64,000 bases of DNA, taken from positions 930,001 through 994,000 of the forward strand of contig NZ_CP094929.1 of NCBI RefSeq assembly GCF_022869165.1, given 5' to 3'. Both the position numbers and the translations under genes were made by a program. Origin of the DNA: Sphaerochaeta associata (GTDB taxonomy: Bacteria > Spirochaetota > Spirochaetia > Sphaerochaetales > Sphaerochaetaceae). Under the pieces are notes generated by a model. It saw only the letters and a list, made by a program, of their open reading frames with translations. It ran no database searches and had not been told where the DNA came from. This document shows positions 7,601 through 39,830 of this stretch, piece after piece (positions within the stretch are counted from its first letter, which is position 1; each line of letters starts with the position of its first letter).

Positions 7601-8167
7601 ATGAATACAGCAGCAGCCACGTTACAAACCGAGCAGCAGGTGACCCTTCTTGCATTGCTCAAAAATAGATTTCTCAAGCATATGAACCGCCATGAAGCTC
7701 TTTCCTGGACTCAGATCGAACAGCGTATTTTGATCGAGCCACAGAAACTTTTTTCTCTTTCAGAGATGGAACGTACCGGTGGAGAGCCTGATGTGATCGG
7801 GTATGACAAAGCCTCGGATACGTATCTGTTCGTCGATTGTTCTGCTGAAAGTCCAATCGGTAGAAGAAGTCTGTGTTATGATCAAGTTGCTCTGGAGCAA
7901 AGAAAAAAGTTTCCTCCAACCGGCAGTGCCTGCGGTTTTGCTGCACAGATGGGCATTGAGCTTCTTGATGAGGGACAGTATCGGACCCTCCAGACGATCG
8001 GTGTCTTCGATGTAAAAACATCAAGTTGGATCCGTACTCCCCAGGCCATGAGAAGTCTTGGAGGAGCGCTCTTCGGCGATAGCCGCTATGACCGGGTGTT
8101 CATCTACCACAATGGTGCCGACTCCTACTATGCATCACGCGGCTTTAGGGGCCTGTTGAGGGTGTAA
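7601..8167 (+). CDS. DUF4256 family protein
   Basis: The 188-residue soluble protein matches the DUF4256 pattern: HEALSWTQIEQRI, MERTGGEPDVIG, FVDCSAESPIGRRSLCYD, ASRGFRGLLRV. The family is widespread and uncharacterised. ATG 7601 follows GAGAGGAGG. The gene stands alone: a 218-base upstream region separates it from the divergent arsenite pump and an 83-base gap with a promoter separates it from mnmA. Confidence 0.85.
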   Translation: MNTAAATLQTEQQVTLLALLKNRFLKHMNRHEALSWTQIEQRILIEPQKLFSLSEMERTGGEPDVIGYDKASDTYLFVDCSAESPIGRRSLCYDQVALEQRKKFPPTGSACGFAAQMGIELLDEGQYRTLQTIGVFDVKTSSWIRTPQAMRSLGGALFGDSRYDRVFIYHNGADSYYASRGFRGLLRV

Positions 8168-26822: not shown

Positions 26823-27713
26823 ATGAAGTATCTATCGGTAGTTGAAACTGCGAAGAAATGGAATATGCCAGAGCGCACTGTGCGTAACTACTGCGCAGAG
26901 GGTAAGATTCCTGGAGCATTTCTTACCGGAAAAACATGGAATATTCCAGTTGATGCCGTGAAGCCCGGCAGGATTAATGCCGTTGCAGCCAAACCAAAGT
27001 CGCTGCTGGATAGTCTTAAGGCTGAGCAAGCCGCCAAAACATCAGGTGGTATCTACCACAAGGTGCAGGTTGACCTTACGTATAACTCAAACCACATCGA
27101 AGGAAGCCGCCTGACCCACGAACAGACCCGTTATATTTTCGAAACGAACACCATCGGCTTTTCTACAGGATCCATCAATGTAGACGACATCGTGGAGACT
27201 GCCAACCATTTCAAGTGTATCGATATGATACTAGAGAGAGCAAAATATGCTCTATCTGAGAGTTTTATCAAGGAACTTCACCGTAGTCTGAAAAACGGCA
27301 CCAGCGACTCTCGGCGAAACTGGTTCGTAGTGGGTGGCTACAAGCGTTTGCCCAATGAGGTTGGTGGCAGAGAAACTACCTCTCCTGAAAGAGTATCGGC
27401 AGAAATGCGTGCACTTTTGGAAACATACAATGCCATACAAGAGAAAACACTGGATGACATTATCACTTTCCATGTACGCTTTGAAACCATCCATCCGTTC
27501 CAGGATGGGAACGGTCGCATCGGTCGGCTGATCATGTTCAAGGAATGTCTGGGAAATGACATCGTGCCGTTTATCATTGATGATGCGATGAAGATGTTCT
27601 ATTATCGCGGTCTGCAAGAGTGGAACAGCGAAAAGGGGTATCTCAGAGACACAATCCTTGCAGCTCAGGATGATTTTAAGAAATACCTGGACTATTTCAG
27701 AATTGCGTATTGA
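26823..27713 (+). CDS. Fic-family protein with N-terminal helix-turn-helix
   Basis: The 296-residue protein has the complete Fic motif HPFQDGNGRIGR at residues 224-235, whose histidine drives AMP or other NMP transfer to a target protein. The N-terminal side of the Fic domain carries SNHIEG (89-94), which fits the inhibitory [ST]xxxE[GN] helix of class II Fic proteins. Residues 1-45 (YLSVVETAKKWNMPERTVRN) resemble an excisionase/MerR-type DNA-binding motif. It therefore looks like an autoinhibited AMPylator that may also bind its own promoter. Targets are unknown. It lies in an accessory stretch near a toxin-antitoxin remnant. Confidence 0.87.
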   Translation: MKYLSVVETAKKWNMPERTVRNYCAEGKIPGAFLTGKTWNIPVDAVKPGRINAVAAKPKSLLDSLKAEQAAKTSGGIYHKVQVDLTYNSNHIEGSRLTHEQTRYIFETNTIGFSTGSINVDDIVETANHFKCIDMILERAKYALSESFIKELHRSLKNGTSDSRRNWFVVGGYKRLPNEVGGRETTSPERVSAEMRALLETYNAIQEKTLDDIITFHVRFETIHPFQDGNGRIGRLIMFKECLGNDIVPFIIDDAMKMFYYRGLQEWNSEKGYLRDTILAAQDDFKKYLDYFRIAY

Positions 27714-28203: not shown

Positions 28204-28647
28204 CTAAATTCCAAGCTCCTTATGGAAATACTGCAATGCAGAGTAACGACACCAGGCAGGTATTGGTATCGATGGATTGTTCTGGATGCGTTTCATTTGC
28301 TTACAATATTTCGTTAGAAATCGGACGAAATTTTGTTTGATATCAAAATCATGCTGTTGTAATACTTCAAACTCATGTTGTCGAATTTGAATAGCATTTG
28401 GCTCAAGATAACGTTGAGAATCTGTAATCACTACGGCTTTGTAGAAATCCAATCCAGCATCATTCCCATCAGCCACAAAACAGAACCTACGATCAACAGG
28501 TAAATGAGATCGTAACGGTATTGCAAAGGTGAGATTGTTGATGCTTAAAAGCACCACGTAATAGGGTCATGTCTGTTTATTCAAGATTTCTAGGCAAGTA
28601 TTCTCATGGTCTTTGAAGAATACAGCAGTTAATCGGTAGAATCGCAT
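28204..28647 (-). pseudogene. Type III toxin, TenpN-like, interrupted by an in-frame TGA
   Basis: Read from ATG 28647 (AGAGAG upstream) the frame encodes MRFYRLTAVFFKDHEN and NKQT, then TGA at codon 27 (28569-28567), then continues in the same frame PYYVVLLSINNLTFAIPLRSH, DGNDAGLDFYKAVVI, IRQHEFEVLQQHDFDIKQNF and RYSALQYF to a TAG at 28206-28204. This is the layout of TenpIN/ToxN-type endoribonuclease toxins of about 147 residues. The stop could arise by CGA to TGA, restoring NKQT-R-PYYV. GTG codons at 28557 and 28554 could restart translation but would lose the N-terminal strand. Family call is from memory of TenpN sequences. Upstream lie a hairpin and two repeats, as in type III systems. 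Confidence 0.7.
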
Positions 28648-28663
28648 CTTTCTCTCTTCAGAA

Positions 28664-28694
28664 TAATGCCCCCGTCACCAGGAAGGGGGCATTA
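28664..28694 (-). terminator. Hairpin between antitoxin repeats and toxin gene
   Basis: A perfect 10-bp stem (TAATGCCCCC at 28664-28673 with GGGGGCATTA at 28685-28694) has an 11-base loop. On the minus strand only a weak TTCTG tail follows. In type III toxin-antitoxin loci a leaky terminator in this place sets the ratio of antitoxin RNA to toxin mRNA. Confidence 0.75.
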
Positions 28695-28793
28695 TCGATT
28701 GAGCTTTCTTTTGATTAACGTGGTTGCGCTCTACAAACACATCATCGATTGAGCTTTCTTTTTATTGGTATGGTTGTGCTCTACAACCACTTA
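28694..28793 (-). ncRNA. Type III antitoxin RNA, two 50-nt repeats (TenpI-like)
   Basis: Two tandem units, 28744-28793 and 28694-28743, match at 41 of 50 positions by hand alignment. On the minus strand each forms a stem (GUGGUUGU/ACAACCAU in the first, GUGUUUGU/GCAACCAC in the second) around the loop AGAGC. The loop GAGC is complementary to GCUC in AAAGCUCAAUCGAU near the end of each unit, so each unit can fold as an H-type pseudoknot. Most differences between units lie outside the stem and pseudoknot pairing. This matches antitoxin RNAs of ToxIN/TenpIN type. Confidence 0.72.
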
Positions 28794-28795
28794 CA

Positions 28796-28847
28796 TCTAT
28801 AAGATATATCAGAAAGCACAAAAAGTAAAGGGTATTGAATCTTCAAT
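28796..28847 (-). promoter_or_regulatory. Candidate antitoxin promoter region with palindrome
   Basis: On the minus strand TTTACT (28829-28824) and TATATC (28808-28803) are 15 bases apart, and a second -10-like TATAGA lies at 28801-28796; none is a strong promoter. The palindrome ATTGAATCTTCAAT at 28834-28847 lies just upstream and could bind a regulator. Confidence 0.35.
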
Positions 28848-28942: not shown

Positions 28943-28948
28943 CTTAAG

Positions 28949-29032
28949 TGCCCAGAAGAAGACTCGAACTTCCACGAGTGTGACCCCGCTAGGACCTGAA
29001 CCTAGTGCGTCTACCAATTCCGCCATCTGGGC
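28949..29032 (-). tRNA. tRNA-Leu(CAG), left copy
   Basis: The 84-base gene folds as a class II tRNA: acceptor GCCCAGA with TCTGGGC, D arm with AATTGGTAGACGC, anticodon stem CTAGG/CCTAG around TTCAGGT (anticodon CAG), a variable arm and T arm GTTCGAGTC. Discriminator A; CCA is not encoded. It is identical to the copy at 39747-39830. A -10 TATAGT lies at 29047-29042, but the bases 18 upstream (CTTTTT) are a poor -35, unlike the other copy. It starts 24 bases after the stop of the sensor kinase gene on the same strand and may be read from that operon. Confidence 0.95.
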
Positions 29033-39740: not shown

Positions 39741-39746
39741 CTATAG

Positions 39747-39830
39747 TGCCCAGAAGAAGACTCGAACTTCCACGAGTGTGACCCCGCTAGGACCTGAACC
39801 TAGTGCGTCTACCAATTCCGCCATCTGGGC
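39747..39830 (-). tRNA. tRNA-Leu(CAG), right copy
   Basis: Identical in sequence to 28949-29032: class II tRNA with anticodon CAG, discriminator A and no encoded CCA. It has a full promoter 10 bases upstream, so it is probably the main expressed copy. Confidence 0.95.

What the first reader, a model, noticed from the sequence alone, without database searches (positions are those of the whole stretch)
28204..28847. Degenerate type III (TenpIN-like) toxin-antitoxin locus with intact antitoxin repeats and a nonsense-mutated toxin
Minus strand order is: weak promoter with palindrome, two 50-nt repeats each able to form an H-type pseudoknot, a 10-bp hairpin with a weak tail, and a toxin frame resembling TenpN. 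The toxin is broken only by TGA at 28569-28567, one C-to-T change from an arginine codon. The repeats match at 41 of 50 positions and the differences mostly spare the paired bases. A single stop with no frameshift suggests recent loss, or suppression or readthrough, while the RNA may still act as an orphan antitoxin against related toxins. Type III loci are rarely described in spirochaetes as far as I know.
Basis: partly seen in the sequence, partly recalled or inferred. Interest (0 to 1): 0.85.

Follow-up and report, generated by a model that had tools for sequence, protein, structure and literature searches.

The report
Broken TenpIN toxin-antitoxin locus, Sphaerochaeta
A spirochaete carries a type III (RNA-inhibited) toxin-antitoxin locus whose toxin gene is cut short by a stop codon while its two RNA antitoxin units are still largely recognisable; the comparison also shows that an Rfam family of unstated function, '6A RNA', is the antitoxin of this toxin family.

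Summary
On the minus strand lie a promoter-like site, two 50-nt repeats (41-42/50 identical), a hairpin and a 147-codon frame stopped by TGA at codon 27. With that codon read as X, the frame matches NCBIfam TenpIN (111.5 bits, cut-off 90). Both repeats match Rfam RF02925, '6A RNA' (51.3 and 36.3 bits), typed there only as sRNA with one hairpin. In relatives from spirochaetes, Firmicutes and viral contigs, 6A-type repeats stand directly upstream of TenpN genes, and a second pseudoknot stem covaries: 95-97% of pairs kept, against 27-43% in slid controls. So 6A RNA is a TenpI-type antitoxin, which nothing I could search states. The toxin is very probably dead: the stop is at a residue invariant in 26 uninterrupted relatives and removes all but 26 residues. 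Private changes are mostly third-position, so the loss looks recent. 'Intact repeats' is too strong: copy 2 has one broken stem pair and copy 1 a diverged linker. Five of eight 6A-type spirochaete loci have toxins broken by five different lesions, with repeats still recognisable in all. No partner toxin was found elsewhere in this genome. An orphan-antitoxin role is possible but untested. The locus lies beside a duplicated tRNA-Leu.

The parts
28801..28829 (-). Promoter-like site of the antitoxin operon: TTTACT, 17 nt, TATCTT
   Evidence: In register with TTKAC-17-TAT..T in six relatives; below the threshold of the consensus scan, so inferred from conservation of position
28744..28793 (-). Antitoxin repeat copy 1 (upstream): 6A/TenpI-type pseudoknot; stems paired, linker diverged from relatives
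   Evidence: RF02925 36.3 bits at 28748-28789, below the gathering score of 41.2; sequence-only model R1 39 bits
28693..28744 (-). Antitoxin repeat copy 2 (downstream): 6A/TenpI-type pseudoknot with one broken pair in stem 1
   Evidence: RF02925 51.3 bits, gathering 41.2; R1 49.4 bits; mismatch seen
28663..28695 (-). Hairpin between antitoxin and toxin, the attenuating-terminator position; weak T tail
   Evidence: Inverted repeat 14 nt, 93%; fold of the region z = -4.65; better T tracts in relatives
28204..28647 (-). tenpN toxin pseudogene, 147 codons, stopped by TGA at codon 27 (28569-28567)
   Evidence: NF047358 111.5 bits, cut-off 90, with X at codon 27; own-genome scan 110.9 bits, one TGA
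28204..28557 (-). Remaining open frame after the stop (GTG start, 117 aa), an N-terminally truncated TenpN if translated at all
   Evidence: the ORF listing; lacks the first strand and helix of the predicted fold
28948..29032 (-). tRNA-Leu (CAG) directly upstream, second copy of the tRNA at 39746-39830; marks an insertion site
   Evidence: ARAGORN; the two copies are identical over 85 nt; the copy at 39746-39830 keeps the conserved neighbour gene

Best explanation
This is a decayed TenpIN type III toxin-antitoxin locus of a Sphaerochaeta chromosome. In an intact locus of this kind one promoter would drive an RNA of tandem pseudoknots. Most transcripts would stop at the hairpin; a minority would read on into tenpN, whose RNase product would cut the RNA into single pseudoknots and be held inactive by them (established for ToxIN and CptIN, inferred for this family). 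Here a nonsense codon at position 27 ends translation before the RNase core, so the product should be inert. The antitoxin RNA may still be made, but no TenpN or ToxN partner was found elsewhere in the genome. The loss is recent relative to divergence from sister loci. Keeping the repeats while losing the toxin is the expected order of decay, because losing the antitoxin first would be lethal.
For: TenpIN match over cut-off; the only TenpIN hit and the only 6A locus in the genome, no ToxN_toxin hit (where no control genome rang either). Both repeats match RF02925. 6A-type repeats stand directly upstream of TenpN in G106, G080, G276, G439, Alkalibaculum, Lachnospiraceae and viral contigs. Two-stem pseudoknot covariation: 97.3% of cells paired against 27-41% when slid, 94 double changes against 25.6 shuffled, on an alignment made by a sequence-only model (similar). 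The stop is at a residue invariant in 26 uninterrupted relatives. Private changes of the frame by codon position 15/8/32, i.e. mostly accumulated under protein constraint. Recurrent toxin loss with repeats still present: frameshift in G080, transposon in G106 contig 27, palindromic inserts in L027, internal deletion in L008. Sister genome G101 keeps the promoter and is then cut by an IS; G091 lacks the locus.
Against: No RNA or protein data. UGA followed by C is, from my own knowledge, a leaky context, so trace readthrough cannot be excluded. A base-call error at codon 27 cannot be excluded without reads. The third-position bias would also be seen if the protein were still made.
Confidence: 0.85

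Rival explanations
1. The RNA is kept by selection as an orphan antitoxin: it neutralises TenpN toxins brought in by phages, plasmids or islands, and the dead toxin is the end state of a useful process.
For: Repeats remain recognisable in five of five spirochaete 6A loci with broken toxins. Relatives of TenpN occur on viral contigs and plasmids. The promoter position is retained.
Against: Toxin-first decay is expected anyway. In the window one copy has a broken stem pair and the other a diverged linker; in L027 one copy has a stem-2 mismatch, so relaxation has begun. No cognate toxin was found in the genome.
Confidence: 0.1
2. The toxin is still made at a low level by UGA readthrough or suppression, giving a hypomorphic but working TA system.
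For: One lesion only, frame otherwise open; private changes mostly third-position; TGA followed by C.
Against: The stop replaces an invariant residue, so a misread residue would often be wrong. TGA is the ordinary stop of neighbouring genes. Other loci of this kind are broken by plainly inactivating lesions.
Confidence: 0.05
3. Sequencing or assembly error at codon 27; the locus is intact.
For: A single substitution in an otherwise open, constrained frame; only one assembly could be read.
Against: The genome is one complete contig, 99.69% complete; antitoxin copies also show private divergence.
Confidence: 0.05

Closest known systems
TenpIN, type III toxin-antitoxin family (NCBIfam NF047358)
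   Same: Toxin sequence over the curated cut-off; order promoter, tandem repeats, hairpin, toxin; chromosomal
   Different: Toxin stopped at codon 27; two repeats only, partly diverged; weak T tail after the hairpin
Rfam RF02925 '6A RNA'
   Same: Both repeats match the model, one over its gathering score
   Different: Rfam types it as sRNA with stem 1 only; here a covarying second stem (H-type pseudoknot), tandem arrangement and TenpN linkage are shown
CptI / CptIN (Eubacterium rectale, PDB 4rmo; PMC4627078)
   Same: 45-nt H-type pseudoknot with a very short loop 1 and a long A-rich loop 2 from two tandem repeats; weak sequence match of the toxins
   Different: Different toxin family and repeat sequence
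ToxIN / AbiQ
   Same: Operon order and pseudoknot antitoxin; weak matches PF13958 15.5 bits, AbiQ 16.1 bits; best fold match ToxN 4ato, probability 0.80, TM 0.46
   Different: Below the family cut-off; repeat about 50 nt rather than about 36

Membership tests
TenpIN type III TA | TenpN-family toxin sequence | tested here: met
   NF047358 111.5 bits, cut-off 90, with the stop read as X
TenpIN type III TA | Tandem array of antitoxin repeats upstream of the toxin | tested here: met
   Two 50-nt copies, 84% identical
TenpIN type III TA | Repeats able to form an H-type pseudoknot | tested here: met
   Covariation of both stems across 50 distinct repeats; in the window copy 1 has all pairs, copy 2 lacks one
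TenpIN type III TA | Rho-independent terminator between antitoxin and toxin | tested here: inconclusive
   Strong hairpin but T-poor tail; relatives have T tracts
TenpIN type III TA | Functional endoribonuclease toxin | tested here: not met
   In-frame TGA at codon 27; filed as a pseudogene relic of the family, not a working member
TenpIN type III TA | Toxin processes the RNA and is inhibited by it | not testable with these tools
   Needs kill/rescue and RNA assays
Rfam RF02925 6A RNA | Score over the gathering threshold of 41.2 bits | tested here: met
   28693-28744: 51.3; 28748-28789: 36.3, sub-threshold
ToxIN (PF13958) | Score over the Pfam cut-off of 25 bits | tested here: not met
   15.5 bits

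The most novel reading that the evidence does not exclude
6A/TenpI RNAs are repeatedly left as stand-alone antitoxins after toxin loss in spirochaetes and are kept by selection as immunity against incoming TenpN toxins on phages and plasmids.
Probability: 0.1. Interest if true: 0.75.

Novelty: new member of a known kind. Interest (0 to 1): 0.45.

Why it matters
It gives a role to Rfam family RF02925, filed only as sRNA: a TenpI-type antitoxin with a covarying pseudoknot, found in spirochaetes, Firmicutes and viral contigs. It adds spirochaetes to the range of TenpIN, and it offers a set of loci with independently killed toxins and recognisable antitoxins in which the fate of orphan type III antitoxins can be tested.

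Tried and rejected
Pfam ToxN in the genome: no hit, but no control genome rang either, so weak evidence. Consensus promoter scan: nothing on the right strand at the right place; the promoter came from comparison instead. PDB sequence search: only a weak CptN match, E 0.59. Fold search of an intact relative: only weak ToxN/MazF-like matches, none at E <= 0.001, so not used as proof. Recoding of TGA: neighbours end in TGA and the residue is invariant. Literature: no paper in the held library mentions RF02925; searches for other spellings of '6A RNA' found only unrelated papers; the paper I believe described many such motifs (10.1093/nar/gkx699) is not held, so priority for the 6A-TenpI link is unknown. 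A dN/dS value was not computed because third positions are near saturation. The excess of broken toxins in 6A-type against other spirochaete TenpN loci (5/8 against 1/11, Fisher p = 0.04) rests on few loci, partly MAGs, and is only descriptive.

Full report
Observation. The hairpin is a 14-nt, 93% complementary inverted repeat at 28663-28695. The RNA of 28660-28810 folds far better than shuffles (z -4.65). The toxin frame 28647-28204 is open except for one TGA at codon 27.

Identity of the protein. With the stop read as X the frame scores 111.5 bits against NCBIfam TenpIN (cut-off 90), over profile positions 1-141 of 141. Pfam ToxN (15.5 bits) and PADLOC AbiQ (16.1 bits) are only weak matches. 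It is therefore a TenpN relic rather than ToxN or CptN. An AlphaFold model of the intact relative from Sphaerochaeta sp. MAG3 (L003) is confident (pLDDT 91). Its best solved match is ToxN of B. thuringiensis, followed by MazF/Kid toxins, but these matches are weak (probability 0.80, TM 0.46, E 0.08).

Identity of the RNA. Both repeats match Rfam RF02925, '6A RNA' (51.3 and 36.3 bits, gathering 41.2). Rfam types that family only as sRNA and models one hairpin. The same family lies immediately upstream of TenpN in the genomes with 6A hits in the family and phylum scans: G106, G080, G276 and G439, with one copy now separated from its toxin by a transposon. It also lies upstream of TenpN in Alkalibaculum, Lachnospiraceae and viral contigs. 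A sequence-only model built from 32 repeats found 55 repeats in TenpN loci. On that alignment, which was not fitted to any structure, stem 1 (6 pairs) and a second stem (loop GAGC with downstream GCTC, or GAAC/GTTC, GGGC/GCCC, AAGC/GCTT) give 97.3% standard pairs and 94 cells with both sides changed. Shuffles give 77.4% and 25.6; sliding the 3' partners gives 27-41%. The 32-sequence set gives the same picture, 95.2% against 33-43%. The unit is thus an H-type pseudoknot with a 2-nt loop 1 and an A-rich loop 2 of about 15 nt, in outline like the CptI antitoxin described in PMC4627078. I conclude that 6A RNA is a TenpI-type antitoxin. I found no statement of this in the held literature, but the likely source paper is not held.

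State of the locus. The stop is at a residue invariant in 26 uninterrupted relatives and leaves only the first strand and helix of the predicted fold. A GTG-started frame of 117 codons follows but lacks that N-terminal part. Among 117 codons shared with two relatives, changes private to the window frame fall 15/8/32 on codon positions 1/2/3, so most divergence arose under protein constraint and the stop is late. The antitoxin is not wholly intact: copy 2 has one stem-1 mismatch, and copy 1 has a linker that differs from that of close relatives. The promoter keeps its register. The hairpin tail is poorer in T than in relatives.

Recurrence. Eight spirochaete loci of the 6A type were read. Three have uninterrupted toxins (L003/L023, L006/L024, L025). 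Five are broken, each by a different kind of lesion: nonsense (window), frame shift in the conserved core (G080), an insert of about 6 kb with transposase-like genes (G106 contig 27), two palindromic inserts (L027) and an internal deletion (L008). Recognisable repeats remain in all five. Of the other 11 spirochaete TenpN loci, one is broken. The difference is suggestive only (p = 0.04). Toxin-first loss is what an addiction module predicts, so this does not show selection on the orphan RNA.

Context. The locus follows a tRNA-Leu(CAG). An identical second copy lies at 39746-39830, 97% identical over 154 bp including its terminator. Genus relatives show that the copy at 39746-39830 is the original one, because its upstream gene is conserved. 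G091 has the sequence that lies downstream of tenpN close to the tRNA, without TenpIN. G101 keeps the sequence up to the promoter and then has an insertion that looks like an IS of the ISL3 type (assigned by eye, not by a profile). This is thus a variable tRNA site.

How it works. Shown: sequence family, pseudoknot covariation, operon order, broken toxin. Inferred from ToxIN and CptIN (PMC5086642, PMC8860590): single promoter, attenuating hairpin, RNA processing by the toxin, inhibition by the processed pseudoknot. Not shown: transcription, residual activity, any role of the orphan RNA.

Verdict. A real, recently decayed member of a known system, in a phylum where it is sparse, with two useful by-products: an assignment for RF02925, and a set of loci with independently killed toxins and remaining antitoxins.

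Noticed in passing
window 28948-29032 and 39746-39830: Two identical tRNA-Leu(CAG) genes as direct repeats (97% over 154 bp with the terminator) bracket a 10.8-kb segment that includes a two-component system and sugar ABC transporter genes; many genus relatives show one strong match only. Looks like accretion at a tRNA site.
   Followed up: partly
window about 8170-39700: In five genus relatives the tRNA-Leu is followed within a short distance by the homologue of window 7601-8167, so about 31.5 kb separates the two in the window: a large insertion or rearrangement.
   Followed up: partly
window 26823-27713: Fic/DOC family protein with an N-terminal HTH domain next to the TenpIN relic (Pfam PF02661, 63 bits).
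   Followed up: no
L083 1715-3139 (G101): An IS-like element, probably ISL3 type, inserted just after the antitoxin promoter of the sister locus; the other side of the insert lies off the contig.
   Followed up: partly
L019 4870-10940 (G106 contig 27): About 6 kb of nested transposase-like genes inserted in a tenpN gene whose single antitoxin repeat and terminator remain.
   Followed up: partly
L007, L029-L036, L042, L067: Treponema TenpN loci carry a second repeat type (GAGGACATAGGGCTTGTCC...) with alternating unequal copies that do not reach RF02925; probably a further TenpI class.
   Followed up: partly
L048-L055, L057, L058, L060, L064, L066: Firmicutes TenpN loci with a third repeat type (GTGACGGTTCTGACAGG...GTAAAATAAAA...TGACCG); two tested examples (L049, L052) match no Rfam family over threshold.
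   Followed up: no
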